Assembly: GCA_035528375.1 (NCBI GenBank)
Contig: DATKYS010000050.1
Location: 1-16,689 of the forward strand
From: a bacterium
GTDB lineage: Bacteria > RBG-13-66-14
Length of the DNA: 16,689 bases
Direction of reading: 5' to 3'
Part shown: one piece after another, positions 1-14,045 of the stretch
Layout: each line of letters begins with the position of its first letter
How positions within the stretch are numbered: the stretch's first letter is position 1
Made by a program: the position numbers and the translations under genes
Notes under the pieces: model-generated
What the model saw: the letters and a program-made list of their open reading frames with translations, nothing else
Database searches by the model: none
Told to the model about the DNA's origin: nothing

Positions 1-40
1 CCTCACCCTTAATCCCTCTCCCACGGGGAGAGGGAGACAG
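1..40. repeat. Family B intergenic repeat, copy 1
   Basis: A CTCACCC-type lead is followed by a perfect hairpin, CCCTCTCCC (14-22), loop ACG, GGGAGAGGG (26-34). It is the first of three copies in the 207-base stretch before the PHP phosphatase gene, which holds no credible gene. Confidence 0.8.
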
Positions 41-3905: not shown

Positions 3906-3923
3906 GGCCGTAGTCCGTTTCCC

Positions 3924-3950
3924 GTAGGGGCGGGTGTCCACACCCGCCCG
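3924..3950. repeat. Family A palindromic repeat, copy 1
   Basis: GTAGGGG followed by the hairpin GCGGGTGT / ACACCCGC. The closing CCCCTAC end is missing. It lies 18 bases upstream of the acetyltransferase ATG. Confidence 0.8.
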
Positions 3951-4007: not shown

Positions 4008-4073
4008 GTAGGGGCGGACATTCAGGTCCGCCCGCGGGCCGACCTAAACGGCACGCCGTCGGTCGGCCCCTAC
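4008..4073. repeat. Family A palindromic repeat, copy 2 (double hairpin)
   Basis: Bounded by GTAGGGG and CCCCTAC. It holds two hairpins: GGGCGGAC / GTCCGCCC, then GGCCGACC / GGTCGGCC around a core ACGGCACGCCGT. The second half is nearly identical to the copies at 5867-5907 and 13941-13975. Confidence 0.85.
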
Positions 4074-4097
4074 GGGTCGGATTTGCGACGGATGGCC

Positions 4098-4124
4098 GTA
4101 GGGGCGGGTGTCCACACCCGCCCG
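4098..4124. repeat. Family A palindromic repeat, copy 3
   Basis: Near-identical to copy 1 at 3924-3950, in the same orientation, again without the CCCCTAC end. Confidence 0.8.
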
Positions 4125-4155: not shown

Positions 4156-4190
4156 CCCTCACCCCGGCCCTCTCCCACGGGGAGAGGGAA
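4156..4190. repeat. Family B intergenic repeat, copy 4
   Basis: Lead CCCTCACCCCGG, then CCCTCTCCC (4168-4176), ACG, GGGAGAGGG (4180-4188). It ends 5 bases from the stop codon of the NAD(P)HX repair gene, so it would lie at the 3' end of that transcript as a strong hairpin without a T-tract. Confidence 0.8.
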
Positions 4191-4195
4191 AGCAA

Positions 4196-5734
4196 TCAGG
4201 CGTTGCAAACCGCCTCGATGGCCTCCGGGATCGCCTCCAGGATGTCCTCGGGCGAGACGCTCCAGTCACCGGCCGATTCCGCGGCCAGCTCCCCGGCCGA
4301 CCCGTGGAGGTACGCCCCGGCGACGGCGGCCGAGAACGGCTCCACCCCCCGGGCCAGAAGCGCCCCGATGACCCCGGCCAGCACGTCCCCCGACCCGCCC
4401 ACGGCCATGCGCCAGTCCCCAGCGGGGATGAAGCAGGCCGTCCCGTCGGCGGAGGCCACCACGGTGCGGTAGCCCTTGAGGAGGCAGACGCCGCCCACCT
4501 CGGCGGCCAGCTTCCGCGCGGCGTCCAGACGGTCCGCGTTGACCTCCGCGGCGCTCAAGCCCAGCAGCCGCCCCGCCTCACCGGGGTGCGGGGTGATGAC
4601 CAAAGGGGCCTGCACCCGCTTGAGCACGTCCAGGCCGGTGGTGTTCAGCCCGTCGGCATCCACGACCAGGGGAACGCGAATACCGGGCAGGACGGCCTCG
4701 AGGGTCCGCCCGACGCACTCGTCGGCGCCCAGGCCCGGACCGACGACGCACGCGTCCCCCGAGTTGAGCTGCGCCAGGGCCGTCTGCGCCCCGTAGTGGG
4801 AGACGAAACCGGCCTCGTCGGGCAGCTCCACCGAGGTGACCCCCAGCATGGCCGGCTTGACCAGGAGGAGGGTGGAGGCGGTGGTGCAGAGTGTGACCAG
4901 TCCCGCCCCGGCCCGGCAGGCCGCCAGGCAGGAGAGCCCCGCCGCCCCCGAGTAGTCCCGGCACCCGGCTAAAAGGTTCACCGTCCCCCGCCCGCCCTTG
5001 TGCGTGTCCGGGGGAAGGGGGTCGAAGTAGGGCGCAACGTCGCCGGGCTCGGCGTGGAACGTCCGCAGCTCGGCGAACCGCTCGGGGTTGACACCGATGG
5101 GCGCGGTGACGACCTCCCCGGCCAGGAGATACCCCGGCGGGAGGAAGAGGCCGGTCTTGGGGCAGGCCAGGGTCACGGTGAGATCGGCGGAGACCGCCAG
5201 CTCCGCGGCGCCGGTGGTCGAATCCAGCCCCGAGGGGACGTCCACCGCGACGACGAAGGCGGGACCGTCGTTGAGGGCCCGAATCACCGGGGCGAAGAGT
5301 CCCCGCGGCTCGCCCGACACCCCCGTTCCCAGAAGGGCGTCCACCGCGACGGCGGCCCGCTCCAGGGCGCGCTCCAGCTCGGCCACGTCCTCCTCTCCCT
5401 CGATCACCCAGGCCCCCCGCCCCCCGGCCCGGAACACGTTCCAGTTCACCAGGGCGTCGCCGGTGAGCTCACCGGGGTCGCCCACGGAAAAGACCAGCGG
5501 CTCGACGCCGGCCCCGGCCAGGTGGCGGGCGACGACCAGCCCGTCGCCGCCGTTGTTCCCCTTCCCCACGACCACCACCACGTCGCCGGGTCCGAGGTCG
5601 GGGAAGCGGGAGAGAATCTCCCGGGCGACGCCGCGCCCGGCGTTCTCCATCAGGGCCGTCCCGGGCAGGCCGTCGCCCTCGATGGCCGCCTGGTCAATCC
5701 GTTTCATCTCGTCGGTGGTGGCCACCGGTCGCAT
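4196..5734 (-). CDS. nnr: Bifunctional NAD(P)HX epimerase / ADP-dependent dehydratase
   Basis: A 512-residue fusion that repairs NADHX and NADPHX, the damaged hydrated cofactors. The N-terminal YjeF_N-type epimerase (about 1-230) shows MENAG (29-33), GKGNNGGDG (57-65), DALLGTG (132-138) and DVPSGLD (165-171). The C-terminal ribokinase-like (S)-NAD(P)H-hydrate dehydratase shows HKGGRG (245-250), DADGLN (359-364), TPHPGE (381-386) and GGSGDVLAG (446-454), the ATP/ADP-binding glycine loop. Both halves look complete, and the length matches bacterial fusions. ATG 5734 is preceded by GGAGG at good spacing; the open frame further upstream is not protein-like. It stands alone, with repeats on both sides. 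A GGGGGA / TCCCCC hairpin lies in its leader. Confidence 0.95.
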   Translation of the reverse strand: MRPVATTDEMKRIDQAAIEGDGLPGTALMENAGRGVAREILSRFPDLGPGDVVVVVGKGNNGGDGLVVARHLAGAGVEPLVFSVGDPGELTGDALVNWNVFRAGGRGAWVIEGEEDVAELERALERAAVAVDALLGTGVSGEPRGLFAPVIRALNDGPAFVVAVDVPSGLDSTTGAAELAVSADLTVTLACPKTGLFLPPGYLLAGEVVTAPIGVNPERFAELRTFHAEPGDVAPYFDPLPPDTHKGGRGTVNLLAGCRDYSGAAGLSCLAACRAGAGLVTLCTTASTLLLVKPAMLGVTSVELPDEAGFVSHYGAQTALAQLNSGDACVVGPGLGADECVGRTLEAVLPGIRVPLVVDADGLNTTGLDVLKRVQAPLVITPHPGEAGRLLGLSAAEVNADRLDAARKLAAEVGGVCLLKGYRTVVASADGTACFIPAGDWRMAVGGSGDVLAGVIGALLARGVEPFSAAVAGAYLHGSAGELAAESAGDWSVSPEDILEAIPEAIEAVCNA

Positions 5735-9060: not shown

Positions 9061-9096
9061 GCTCAACTACGGCGTCAACGCACACGTCCGCCGAAT

Positions 9097-9150
9097 GTAG
9101 GGGCGGGTCTTTAGACCCGCCCGCGGGCTGACCCAAAGGTCAGTCCCTAC
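9097..9150. repeat. Family A palindromic repeat, copy 5 (double hairpin)
   Basis: GTAGGGGCGGGTCT / AGACCCGCCC, then GCTGACC / GGTCAGTCCCTAC. Same two-hairpin plan as the copy at 4008-4073, with different inner arms. Confidence 0.85.
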
Positions 9151-9255: not shown

Positions 9256-10446
9256 CTACCCCGGCGGCTCGAGGCTCACTTTGAACCCCTCGGCCACCGT
9301 GTCCGCGGGGACCCAGCCGACGACGCCCAGCGGAGTGTAAACCCGCCACCAGCCGTCCTCTTCGTCCAGGCGATACACCGGGTCGCGCGCCCGCAGCTCG
9401 CCGATCGCTGAGCCGTCCGGGGCATCGTAGACCTCCGTGCCCGCCTCCACGCAGTAGCCGAAGGCCTCGGGCAGACCCTCCGTACAAGCGGCCGCCGGGT
9501 CCGCCGTCCAGACAGAGTCCTCGGCGACGAGGTACAGCTTCTCACCGTCGGAGGCCAGCCCCTGCGCTATTACCACATGGGTGAACTCGTACCACTGCCG
9601 GAAGGTCCAGACGCTGTACACCACCCAGGGCAGCGGCAGCCAGCCGTCCACCTCCCGGGCTTCTACGTCTATCCGAAAGAGGTAGGCCAACTCCTCACCC
9701 TCGCCGTAGTAGTCGTGGGCCGAGGCCCACAGGCGCCCGGTGTCCCAAGCCAGCCCGGTGATCTTGTACCTCTCGTCCAGGGCCAGGATTTCCTCGAACT
9801 CCCGGTCTCGCCAGACGCCTATCACGTTGTGCCGGGCCGCGTAGAGATTCTCCCCGTCCGAGGCCAGCGGTCCCGAGTACTCCCCCCGGTAGACCCAGCC
9901 GTCGCCGATGCGCTGGAAGAGGAACTCCTCCCACTCGTCCACGGTGCGCCCGGAGCGCAGCGCCCCGGAGAACCAGAAATCGCCCTCGTGGAAGCAGATG
10001 CCGGAGAGATACGATGCCTCTCGGGGCAGTATGAACTCCGGCCAAGGCTCTTCCTCGCCGGTCTCCGGGTCCACCCGGACGATCTTTTCTTTTTCGACGA
10101 CGTAGAGCACGCCGTCGTGGAAGGTGGGCTCGGTGTAGTAGACGGCGTAGGGCCTTAAAAGACCGTAGAAGGACTGCCACGGCTCGTCGCCAAAAACCTC
10201 CTCGGCGTCCTGGTAAGCCGGTTCGATGTTCGCCCCCGCGGGTCCGGCGAGGAGGCAAACCAGCAAAAGTATGGAAAGCTTACGCGTTGAGACTGTTGCA
10301 CAAAAGGGGTGTTCGTAGGGGCGACCCTCTGCGGTCGCCCGCGGGCGGGGGCGGAGCCCCGCCCCTACGGGGAATATTCGTTTTTCGCTGACAGCTCTGC
10401 TAGCCATCAAATCACGCCAAAATGGCATTTTGCAACAGTCTCGCAT
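9256..10446 (-). CDS. Exported propeller-like protein with SH3-like C-terminus, start displaced by an insertion
   Basis: As it stands the frame encodes 396 residues from ATG 10446. Residues 1-53 are translation of an inserted element. From residue 55, RKLSILLLVCLLAGPAGA is a typical signal peptide, with cleavage after about 72. The body has repeated strands such as VLYVVEKEKIVRVDPETGEE, ITGLAWDTGRLWASA and AQGLASDGEKLYLVAED, like blades of a beta-propeller. The last 60 residues or so (VYDAPDGSAIGELRARDPVY to VGWVPADTV) look like a bacterial SH3 domain of the kind that binds cell wall or ligands. Without the insertion the gene would begin ATG CGT AAG CTT, 7 bases after GGAGG. The old start is now ACG at 10285-10287. 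Whether the extended form is exported is unknown. It follows the methyltransferase stop by 14 bases. Function unknown. Confidence 0.8.
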   Translation of the reverse strand: MRDCCKMPFWRDLMASRAVSEKRIFPVGAGLRPRPRATAEGRPYEHPFCATVSTRKLSILLLVCLLAGPAGANIEPAYQDAEEVFGDEPWQSFYGLLRPYAVYYTEPTFHDGVLYVVEKEKIVRVDPETGEEEPWPEFILPREASYLSGICFHEGDFWFSGALRSGRTVDEWEEFLFQRIGDGWVYRGEYSGPLASDGENLYAARHNVIGVWRDREFEEILALDERYKITGLAWDTGRLWASAHDYYGEGEELAYLFRIDVEAREVDGWLPLPWVVYSVWTFRQWYEFTHVVIAQGLASDGEKLYLVAEDSVWTADPAAACTEGLPEAFGYCVEAGTEVYDAPDGSAIGELRARDPVYRLDEEDGWWRVYTPLGVVGWVPADTVAEGFKVSLEPPG

Positions 10447-10447
10447 T
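10284..10447. mobile_element. 154-bp MITE-like insertion with terminal inverted repeats and 5-bp target duplication
   Basis: The element is 10289-10442. The ends are GAGACTGTTGCA on the plus strand at 10289-10300 and its exact complement TGCAACAGTCTC at 10431-10442, with AAAA tracts just inside both. The flanking 5-mers on the minus strand are AATGC (10443-10447) and AACGC (10284-10288), a target duplication with one substitution. No transposase is encoded. Removing the element plus one flank joins GGAGGATTGATA to ATGCGTAAGCTT. Element plus duplication is 159 bases, so the reading frame is kept. I do not assign it to a named transposon family. Confidence 0.8.
10315..10367. repeat. Family A palindromic repeat, copy 6, inside the MITE-like element
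   Basis: GTAGGGGCGACC / GGTCGCCC, then GGGCGGGGGC / GCCCCGCCCCTAC: the two-hairpin form. It occupies the middle of the 154-bp element, so either the palindrome inserted into the element or the element captured it. Confidence 0.85.
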
Positions 10448-10453
10448 ATCAAT

Positions 10454-10458
10454 CCTCC
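10454..10458 (-). promoter_or_regulatory. Ribosome-binding site that fixes the ancestral start
   Basis: GGAGG on the minus strand, 7 bases before ATG 10446 and 2 bases after the methyltransferase stop. It now drives the extended frame. Confidence 0.75.
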
Positions 10459-10460
10459 AT

Positions 10461-11372
10461 CTATTCATATACGCTGAGGTTCAAATCCACCAGCAGATCG
10501 GCGGAACTTGTAATCAACCGCTGCGCCTGGGTGAAGTACTCCTCGTCTATTTCCACACCCACGGCGTTCCTGCCGGCCCTGACCGCGGCAACCACCGTCG
10601 TCCCCGTCCCCATGAACGGATCGAGCACCGTGTCGCCGTGAAACGAAAACATCCTCACCAGGCGATCCGCCAGGACCAGCGGGAAAGGGGCGGGATGCGC
10701 GCTCGTCGAAGCCCCGCCCAGATGCCATATCTGCTGGAACCACTCGTTGAAGCTCTCCCGCTCGATCATGCTCAGCCGCCGCTGTTCGGTGGTGGGCCTG
10801 CGATACCCCCCCGATTTGCGCTGCATGAGGATGTATTCGATGTCGTTTTTCACGATGGCGTTCGGTTCGTAGGGCTTGCCGAGGAACCGTCCTCCTCCTT
10901 CCACCTCCGTCGTGGCGTTGGCGATTTTGTACCAGATGATCGGGTTCAGGTTGTCGAAGCCTATCTTTCGGCACCTGACGGCGATGTCGGAGTGCAGGGG
11001 CATTACCAGATGCCGTCCGTTCTTTCTCCGCGCCAGGCACACGTCGCCGACCACGCAGCACAGACGCCCGCCGGGGGTCAGCACGCGGTAAACCTGCCGC
11101 CATACCTTGTCCAGCTCGTCCAGGAACTCCTCGTAATCCGCGATGTGACCCAACTGACCCGGTGTATCGTTGTACCTCTTCAAGGTCCAGTAGGGCGGGG
11201 AGGTGACGACCAGGTGACAGCTTCCGTCGGAGAGCCAACTCAAGTCTCGCGCGTCCCCACGCTTCAAGAGAACTGAAACCTCGGCCTTCCCGTTTTCAGC
11301 CCTGGCCTTCTCCGCTTCCCTGAAGCGCTCGTCCACCGAGAGGGACTCGTAGCTTTTCGCCCTGGCTTCCAT
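10461..11372 (-). CDS. Solitary DNA methyltransferase (N4-cytosine / N6-adenine type, beta order)
   Basis: A 303-residue SAM-dependent DNA amino-methyltransferase of the N6/N4 family. The catalytic motif TSPPYW (57-62) comes first, the target-recognition part lies between, and the SAM-binding motif DPFMGTGTT (251-259) follows, so the order is beta-class. PAPFP (227-231) and VGVEIDEEYF (271-280) also fit. SPPYW is more usual in N4-cytosine enzymes, but specificity cannot be read. No restriction endonuclease is adjacent, so it is an orphan methylase or a remnant. By eye its G+C (roughly 55-60 percent) is below that of neighbouring genes. ATG 11372 is preferred over TTG 11375. GGGGAG lies 4 bases upstream and belongs to a family B repeat. 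The exported propeller/SH3 gene follows in the same unit. Confidence 0.92.
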   Translation of the reverse strand: MEARAKSYESLSVDERFREAEKARAENGKAEVSVLLKRGDARDLSWLSDGSCHLVVTSPPYWTLKRYNDTPGQLGHIADYEEFLDELDKVWRQVYRVLTPGGRLCCVVGDVCLARRKNGRHLVMPLHSDIAVRCRKIGFDNLNPIIWYKIANATTEVEGGGRFLGKPYEPNAIVKNDIEYILMQRKSGGYRRPTTEQRRLSMIERESFNEWFQQIWHLGGASTSAHPAPFPLVLADRLVRMFSFHGDTVLDPFMGTGTTVVAAVRAGRNAVGVEIDEEYFTQAQRLITSSADLLVDLNLSVYE

Positions 11373-11376
11373 CAAT

Positions 11377-11475
11377 CTCCCCCTCCCTGTGGGAGACTTT
11401 CGAGGACATGCTTGTGTGAAGGCTGCCGCATGTCCCCTCTCCCTTCTAGGGAGAGGGTTAGGGTGAGGGTCGAGG
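11377..11475. repeat. Family B intergenic repeat, copy 5, three-module form
   Basis: Module 1 is CTCCC / GGGAG (11383-11395). Module 2 is the perfect arm pair GGACATGC (11404-11411) and GCATGTCC (11428-11435). Module 3 is CCCTCTCCC (11435-11443) and GGGAGAGGG (11449-11457) with the tail TTAGGGTGAGGGTCGAGG. The same order occurs at 13757-13858. The end next to the methyltransferase supplies its ribosome-binding site. Confidence 0.8.
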
Positions 11476-11488
11476 CTGGGGACGGAGA

Positions 11489-11517
11489 TACGGCGGCCCG
11501 CAGAGGGGCCGCCCTAC
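11489..11517. repeat. Family A-like palindrome, copy 7
   Basis: GGCGGCCC / GGGGCCGCC around GCAGA, ending GCCCTAC. It lies 4 bases beyond the stop codon of the cysteine-rich gene and may act as a 3' hairpin. Confidence 0.65.
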
Positions 11518-11943: not shown

Positions 11944-11976
11944 GAGGGGCGGGCGGGTGTGGACACCCGCCCCTAC
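11944..11976. repeat. Family A palindromic repeat, copy 8
   Basis: GGGCGGGTGT / ACACCCGCCCCTAC, in inverted orientation relative to 3924-3950 and 4098-4124. It abuts the end of the low-GC segment. Confidence 0.85.
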
Positions 11977-12000
11977 GGGAGAGGATTGATACATTCCCCC

Positions 12001-13756: not shown

Positions 13757-13858
13757 TCCCCTCCCCCCTTTGGGGGGAAGTGCGCTTACATGCCGGTGTG
13801 AGGGGTGAAGCGTCCCCCTCTCCCTTCTAGGGAGAGGGTGGGGGTGAGGGTCGGGGTA
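13757..13858. repeat. Family B intergenic repeat, copy 6, three-module form
   Basis: Module 1 is six C / six G (13763-13768 and 13772-13777). Module 2 is CGCTT...AAGCG (about 13784-13812) around ACATGCCGGTGTGAGGGGTG. Module 3 is CCCTCTCCC (13816-13824) and GGGAGAGGG (13830-13838) with a GGGGGTGAGGGTCGGGG tail. Same order as 11377-11475, but the module 2 arms differ while still pairing. Confidence 0.75.
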
Positions 13859-13887
13859 GGGAGCGTGAAAACGGCGACCAGCGGTTT

Positions 13888-13922
13888 CCCTCTCCCGGTG
13901 GGAGAGGGACCAAGGGTGAGGG
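13888..13922. repeat. Family B intergenic repeat, copy 7
   Basis: CCCTCTCCC (13888-13896), GGT, GGGAGAGGG (13900-13908), then ACCAAGGGTGAGGGC. It and its neighbours fill the 301-base gap between the DUF2085 gene and galT, which holds no gene. Confidence 0.8.
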
Positions 13923-13940
13923 CTACCTTATAAAAACTGG

Positions 13941-13975
13941 CCGACCTGAACGGCGCGCCGTCGGTCGGCCCCTAC
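13941..13975. repeat. Family A palindromic repeat, copy 9
   Basis: CCGACCTGAACGGCGCGCCG and TCGGTCGGCCCCTAC form the inverted near-copy of 5867-5907. The opening GTAGGGG end is absent here. Confidence 0.8.
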
Positions 13976-14045
13976 GTCATCGCAAATCGCACGGCACGGT
14001 TAGATTACCCGCGCTCCGAAAGGACCGGCCGACCCGCCCCGGCGG

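What the first reader, a model, noticed from the sequence alone, without database searches (positions are those of the whole stretch)
10284..10447. A MITE-like element sits exactly in a start codon and extends the protein in frame by 53 codons
Seen: 12-bp perfect terminal inverted repeats (GAGACTGTTGCA), AAAA tracts inside both ends, and flanking 5-mers AATGC and AACGC. Deleting 154 + 5 bases gives GGAGG, 7 bases, ATG CGT AAG CTT and a classic signal peptide. The inserted length of 159 bases keeps the frame, so the original ribosome-binding site and ATG now start a protein with a 53-residue leader ahead of the signal sequence. The former ATG has become ACG. Inference: the insertion changed export or expression of the protein, or the leader is tolerated or cleaved.
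Basis: partly seen in the sequence, partly recalled or inferred. Interest (0 to 1): 0.75.

Follow-up and report, generated by a model that had tools for sequence, protein, structure and literature searches.

The report
Mini-transposon inserted in a start codon
A 154-base non-autonomous transposon with a second kind of mobile repeat inside it jumped into the start codon of a probable exported-protein gene in an uncultured Coatesbacteria-lineage bacterium, and because the jump copied the ATG and landed in its one open frame, the gene still reads through with 53 extra codons; it is a clean example of a known kind of event.

Summary
A 154-bp element (10289-10442) with perfect 12-bp terminal inverted repeats sits in the start codon of a minus-strand gene (10446-9256). 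A same-genus genome (G003, Candidatus Coatesbacteria CSMAG_1439) has the empty site: same neighbouring methylase gene, GGAGG, ATG, MRKLSILLL, and a clean 159-bp gap. G003 carries at least seven other full-length copies, the closest with 4 differences in 154. G001 has one good copy, and the own genome has one degenerate copy.

Sixteen TIR elements from four genomes show a target duplication at exactly 5 bp: 6 perfect, 10 with at most one mismatch, against 1.3 expected. The window's AATGC/AACGC fits. The TIR equals that published for ISPg4 (IS5 family) and MITEPgRS of Porphyromonas. No IS4/IS5-type transposase was found in the family, so the mobiliser is unidentified.

New: the element's core is a GTAG-tagged REP doublet. 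The genus holds dozens of solo copies, and its RAYT genes lie beside the same hairpins.

The duplicated ATG keeps the original ribosome-binding site, and only one of three frames through the element is open, so the leader was retained by luck. Predicted effects are lower translation initiation and an unchanged mature protein if exported. Neither is shown.

The parts
10289..10442 (-). MITE, 154 bp, given in the orientation of the gene it entered
   Evidence: Empty site in G003; other copies in G003/G001
10431..10442 (-). Terminal inverted repeat GAGACTGTTGCA, start side of the gene
   Evidence: Sequence; identical to the published left TIR of ISPg4 (PMC4596501 Table 2)
10289..10300 (+). Terminal inverted repeat GAGACTGTTGCA, far end
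   Evidence: Sequence
10443..10447 (-). Target-site 5-mer AATGC, first copy; holds the ATG now used
   Evidence: 5-bp duplications in sibling copies
10284..10288 (-). Target-site 5-mer AACGC, second copy; former ATG mutated to ACG
   Evidence: One mismatch at k = 5; empty site
10314..10369 (.). REP doublet (REPIN-like): GTAG-hairpin, short spacer, hairpin-CTAC, inside the MITE
   Evidence: About 90 BLAST matches in the own genome, both strands of the palindrome counted; same hairpins beside RAYT genes; paired changes in a hairpin stem
10454..10458 (-). Ribosome-binding site GGAGG, 7 bases before ATG 10446-10444
   Evidence: Sequence; conserved at the empty site
10288..10446 (-). 53-codon leader: ATGC of the first target 5-mer, the whole MITE and the first A of the second 5-mer
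   Evidence: only open frame of the three on this strand
10231..10287 (-). Ancestral signal peptide TRKLSILLLVCLLAGPAGA, predicted cut before NIEPA
   Evidence: hydrophobicity; G003 orthologue RKLSILLLVGFLTGPALA-NIEPA; no predictor was run
9256..10446 (-). Interrupted gene: predicted exported protein with weak C-terminal bacterial SH3-like match
   Evidence: PF08239 E = 1.4e-4, below the Pfam cut-off
10461..11375 (-). Upstream N6/N4 DNA methylase gene, stop codon 14 bases before the ATG; synteny anchor

Best explanation
[quoted passage not shown] Shown: mobility within the genus, the empty site, the target-duplication length and the open frame. The duplication left one ATG attached to the original ribosome-binding site. 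Inferred: initiation there gives a preprotein with a 53-residue basic leader in front of the old signal peptide, while the second ATG, deprived of a ribosome-binding site, decayed to ACG. Inferred: the 12-bp TIR stem starting just after the AUG and the hairpins of the REP core lower translation initiation, and signal peptidase, if it still acts, removes leader and signal peptide together and restores the original mature protein. The insertion is most likely a recent, near-neutral or mildly harmful event that survived because 154 + 5 bases is a multiple of three and the entered frame is open.
For: Empty orthologous site with a clean 159-bp gap. Other copies in G003 and G001, nearest 150/154 identical. 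A 5-bp duplication in 6 of 16 elements perfectly and 10 of 16 with at most one mismatch, 0 of 5000 shuffles as good, no signal at neighbouring lengths. TIR identical to the left end of ISPg4 and of MITEPgRS. Only one of three frames on the gene strand is open. SD and ATG retained. Cost of opening -20..+15 rises from about 9 to 18-20 kcal/mol when the whole element is transcribed; the filled region folds at -77 kcal/mol, z -4.1. Signal peptide and NIEPA start conserved with G003.
Against: No autonomous partner: PF01609, PF05598 and PF13586 are absent from all seven genomes of the family. The window's own target duplication is imperfect (AATGC/AACGC), and six of the ten family copies show none. 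No expression or protein data. The gene could be silenced instead: nothing shows that the leader form is made. With short-range folding (60-90 nt each side) the initiation penalty nearly vanishes. Only one orthologue, truncated after 94 codons by a contig end, was available.
Confidence: 0.78

Rival explanations
1. The insertion has silenced the gene: the TIR stem and the hairpin core next to the AUG block initiation or destabilise the mRNA, and the open frame is a young pseudogene that has not yet collected stops.
For: Strong predicted structure beginning just after the start codon; loss of the second ATG without a replacement start; no ATG, GTG or TTG in frame between leader residue 14 and the signal peptide core (sequence).
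Against: The frame of the original gene is intact and the leader entered the single open frame. The 94 comparable codons have dN 0.089 and dS 0.31 against G003, so the gene was under constraint for at least part of the divergence, though this cannot date a loss.
Confidence: 0.3
2. The leader is a functional N-terminal extension that was recruited, for example to delay or redirect export.
For: The leader is basic (10 K/R against 5 D/E, pI 9.9) and sits directly before the signal peptide, as some extended signal peptides do (comparison from general knowledge).
Against: The sequence is simply the translated transposon; the orthologue has none; conservation cannot be tested because it occurs once.
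Confidence: 0.05
3. Assembly artefact: the element was joined wrongly into this locus during metagenome assembly.
For: The genome is a 144-contig assembly, probably from a metagenome, and the element is a repeat.
Against: The own genome holds no second near-identical copy that could cause such a join; both flanks are collinear with G003; the frame, the near-perfect target duplication and the exact ends fit transposition.
Confidence: 0.03
4. The whole repeat was moved by the REP-associated tyrosine transposase (RAYT) acting on the REP core rather than by a DDE transposase acting on the TIRs.
For: RAYT genes beside the same GTAG hairpins occur in the own genome and its congeners.
Against: The inserted unit starts and ends exactly at the TIRs and is flanked by a 5-bp duplication. 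G005 has elements with the same type of TIR and 5-bp duplication but no REP core.
Confidence: 0.04

Closest known systems
MITEPgRS / MITE464 and BrickBuilt of Porphyromonas gingivalis (PMC4596501)
   Same: MITEPgRS has the identical left TIR GAGACTGTTGCA and a right TIR with one difference; about 10-20 copies; BrickBuilt is described as a MITE that trapped another repeat
   Different: The P. gingivalis elements hold tandem repeats, this one a REP doublet; BrickBuilt is reported as intergenic with 2- or 4-bp duplications, here 5 bp and in a start codon
ISPg4 (IS5 family, as listed in PMC4596501 Table 2)
   Same: Left TIR identical, right TIR CGCAACAGTCTC differs in one base
   Different: ISPg4 is a full-length IS element; no transposase gene is present here or detected in the family's genomes
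Rickettsia palindromic elements (Ogata et al., cited in PMC10969869 and PMC5896051)
   Same: About 150-bp palindromic mobile repeats found in frame inside protein genes
   Different: RPEs recur in frame in many genes with a conserved peptide and are CGTC-tagged (PMC3733652); here one clear case, IS-type TIRs and target duplications
GTAG-tagged REPs / REPINs with RAYTs (PMC2817692, PMC3116915, PMC3733652)
   Same: Core has GTAG outside two inverted GC-rich hairpins; dozens of copies; RAYT genes beside the same hairpins. REP dimers inside longer palindromes are reported for Anabaena variabilis GTAG-15
   Different: Here the doublet is enclosed by IS-type TIRs and moved as part of a larger element

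Membership tests
MITE | Short (about 50-1000 bp), no transposase gene, terminal inverted repeats | tested here: met
   154 bp, 12-bp perfect TIRs, no own gene
MITE | Several copies at unrelated loci with target-site duplications | tested here: met
   At least seven other full-length copies in G003 and one in G001; 5-bp duplications
MITE | Filled and empty sites among relatives | tested here: met
   G003:C443 empty site
MITE | Parent transposon with matching ends in the same or a related genome (supporting feature) | tested here: inconclusive
   No IS4/IS5-type transposase (PF01609, PF05598, PF13586) in the family's seven genomes, but these assemblies are fragmented and only three models were tried
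IS5-family derivative (ISPg4 type) | TIR sequence | tested here: met
   Identical 12-mer in published Table 2
IS5-family derivative (ISPg4 type) | Target duplication length of the group | tested here: inconclusive
   5 bp here; the related Porphyromonas MITE shows 2 or 4 bp (PMC4596501)
IS5-family derivative (ISPg4 type) | Mobilised by an IS5-type transposase | tested here: inconclusive
   None found in the family genomes; the label rests on the TIR alone
REP doublet / REPIN (core only) | GTAG tetranucleotide outside a GC-rich hairpin, two in inverted order | tested here: met
   10315-10368; paired changes in a stem
REP doublet / REPIN (core only) | High copy number and a RAYT gene flanked by the same kind of repeat | tested here: met
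   About 90 matches, RAYT with GTAG hairpins around it, NF047646 109 bits against cut-off 80
Rickettsia palindromic element | CGTC tag and recurrent in-frame insertion with a conserved peptide | tested here: not met
   Core is GTAG-tagged; of 12 copies inspected only the window copy was accepted as lying in frame through a plausible gene, two other spanning ORFs were judged spurious by eye

The most novel reading that the evidence does not exclude
The element is a composite that can be spread by two unrelated transposition systems: a DDE transposase at its IS5-type ends and a RAYT at its REP core, so that MITE jumps seed new REP doublets that RAYT can later copy, and the other way round.
Probability: 0.2. 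Interest if true: 0.55.

Novelty: new member of a known kind. Interest (0 to 1): 0.4.

Why it matters
It gives a natural experiment: filled and empty alleles of one gene within a genus, differing by a 53-codon extension before a signal peptide. It shows how target-site duplication can rescue a gene when a transposon hits the start codon, because the ATG is copied. It also documents a MITE family with Porphyromonas-type IS5 ends and a REP doublet core in an uncultured lineage for which my one literature search returned no paper on mobile repeats.

Tried and rejected
Looked for the autonomous partner with three Pfam transposase models over 14 genomes of the phylum: only one short match in G009 for PF01609, none in the family. 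Scanned 84,980 genomes for the subterminal motif: 13 hits, 4 of them G003 contigs; the rest, one per unrelated organism, were taken as chance and not inspected. Looked for TIR pairs 400-3000 bp apart in fetched loci: none. Rfam: no RNA family above threshold. Promoter scan of the insertion region: none found, so a promoter carried by the element is not supported. NCBIfam gave no name for the gene. MAFFT of filled against empty site misplaced the gap; an affine-gap alignment replaced it.

Full report
WHAT IS THERE. The gene at 10446-9256 is on the minus strand. Its ribosome-binding site GGAGG and ATG are followed almost at once by a 154-bp element (10442-10289) with perfect 12-bp terminal inverted repeats GAGACTGTTGCA, then AACGC and the old signal peptide RKLSILLLVCLLAGPAGA. 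The window is contig C50 of a 2.63-Mb, 144-contig genome.

EMPTY SITE. Of 145 related genomes, one besides the own has a detectable orthologue: G003:C443, truncated at the contig end after 94 codons. There the DNA methylase gene is followed by GGAGG-ATTGATG-ATGCGTAAGCTTTCC and the protein starts MRKLSILLLVGFLTGPALANIEPA. An affine-gap alignment shows one gap of 159 bases (154 + 5) and otherwise collinear sequence. The comparable part of the gene has dN 0.089 and dS 0.31, the methylase dN 0.10 and dS 1.07. The gene was under some constraint, but this cannot tell the time before the insertion from the time after it.

COPIES. Exact TIRs occur only here in the own genome; one degenerate copy with a mismatched left TIR lies at C18:4297. 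G003 has full-length copies at C227 (two), C284, C395, C401, C403 and C57, and G001 has one at C115. The closest differs at 4 of 154 positions. A covariance model built from nine copies gives the same census and further weak candidates. Its many hits limited to positions 73-129 are solo copies of the core repeat. Weak full-length hits may be forced alignments and are not counted.

TARGET DUPLICATION. Flanks of 16 elements (ten of this family, five of a related 165-bp family in G005 and one short element) were compared at every length from 2 to 10. Only length 5 stands out: 6 perfect and 10 with at most one mismatch. Shuffled pairings give 0.37 and 1.31 on average, and none of 5000 reaches 10. 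The window's AATGC/AACGC is among the one-mismatch cases. Six of the ten family members have no recognisable duplication at length 5 (2-5 mismatches), so recombination or decay has been at work too. The set was assembled by hand from the search hits.

IDENTITY OF THE ENDS. A full-text search for the TIR found the P. gingivalis MITE paper PMC4596501. Its Table 2 lists ISPg4 (IS5 family) as GAGACTGTTGCA / CGCAACAGTCTC and MITEPgRS/MITE464 as GAGACTGTTGCA / TGCAACGGTCTC. The family label rests on the TIR alone. No PF01609, PF05598 or PF13586 protein was found in the seven family genomes. The mobiliser is therefore lost, unassembled or of another kind.

THE CORE IS A REP DOUBLET. Positions 10314-10369 account for most of about 90 BLAST matches in the own genome, mostly outside any MITE; because the unit is palindromic some places are counted on both strands. 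The unit reads GTAG-hairpin, short spacer, hairpin-CTAC. PMC3733652 and PMC2817692 describe REPs by the GTAG tag, the palindrome and association with RAYT genes, and the former calls a pair with GTAG outside a head-head dimer. Y1-type transposase genes occur in all four genomes of the genus. GTAGGG hairpins lie near both ends of those inspected where the locus extends far enough. The own one passes the NCBIfam cut-off for REP-associated tyrosine transposase. In the MITE copies the second hairpin keeps its pairing through changes on both sides at two positions. The alignment has only nine rows, several closely related, and the structure came from the same alignment, so this is supportive only. 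Elements in G005 with similar ends lack the core, so the core does not look necessary for mobility.

WHY THE GENE STAYED OPEN. Three conditions had to hold. The 5-bp duplication contained the ATG, so one ATG kept its ribosome-binding site. The inserted length, 159, is a multiple of three. The frame entered is the only open one of the three on that strand. Given an insertion at this place, the open frame has a one-in-three chance. Other family members have lengths of 134 to 155, so length does not look tuned. The event was picked out because it is legible, and no selection for the leader is implied.

LIKELY CONSEQUENCE (inference). Starts available in frame are ATG at codons 1, 7 and 14; the former start is ACG without an upstream Shine-Dalgarno sequence. 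With 150 or more bases of context on each side, opening the initiation region costs 18-20 kcal/mol with the insert against about 9 without it. With 60-90 bases the difference is at most about 2 kcal/mol for -20..+15. A penalty is thus expected mainly once the far TIR is transcribed. The predicted signal-peptidase site is downstream of the insertion, and the NIEPA start is conserved in G003, so export would yield the same mature protein. No signal-peptide predictor was run.

COMPARISON AND NOVELTY. In-frame capture of small mobile palindromes by genes is known, most clearly for Rickettsia palindromic elements (PMC10969869, PMC5896051). REP dimers inside larger palindromes are reported for Anabaena variabilis. 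MITEs with the same ends are known in Porphyromonas. What is new here is the family, the host lineage, the REP core and the exact start-codon event: a new member of a known kind. The idea that two transposition systems spread the same composite is open and untested.

Noticed in passing
L046 (G001:C115), element at 809-959, ORF 297-845 +: Another copy of the family supplies the last 12 or so codons and the stop codon of an upstream 182-aa reading frame, a C-terminal counterpart to the window case.
   Followed up: partly
L002/L035 (G000:C18, about 4223-4450) and L134 (G001:C104): An older, decayed insertion appears shared between two species at the same intergenic site; AGGAT precedes the left TIR in one and follows the right TIR in the other, as if different parts of one insertion survived.
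   Followed up: partly
L102-L107 (G005): A second family, about 165 bp, with ends GAGACTTTTGCATAA and 5-bp duplications but no REP core, in another genus of the same family.
   Followed up: partly
window 3922-3950, 4037-4074, 4096-4124, 9095-9123, 11949-11979, 13939-13976: Solo REP-type hairpins in the window, related to the core of the element.
   Followed up: partly
G000:C91:11809-12126 (L112): RAYT gene between GTAG hairpins; similar genes with such hairpins also in G001, G002 and G003.
   Followed up: yes
window 14-35, 4168-4189, 11434-11501, 13815-13882, 13888-13909: A different dispersed repeat of the type CCCTCTCCC...GGGAGAGGG, in part followed by GGGTGAGGGTC, also seen beside REPs in other contigs.
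   Followed up: no
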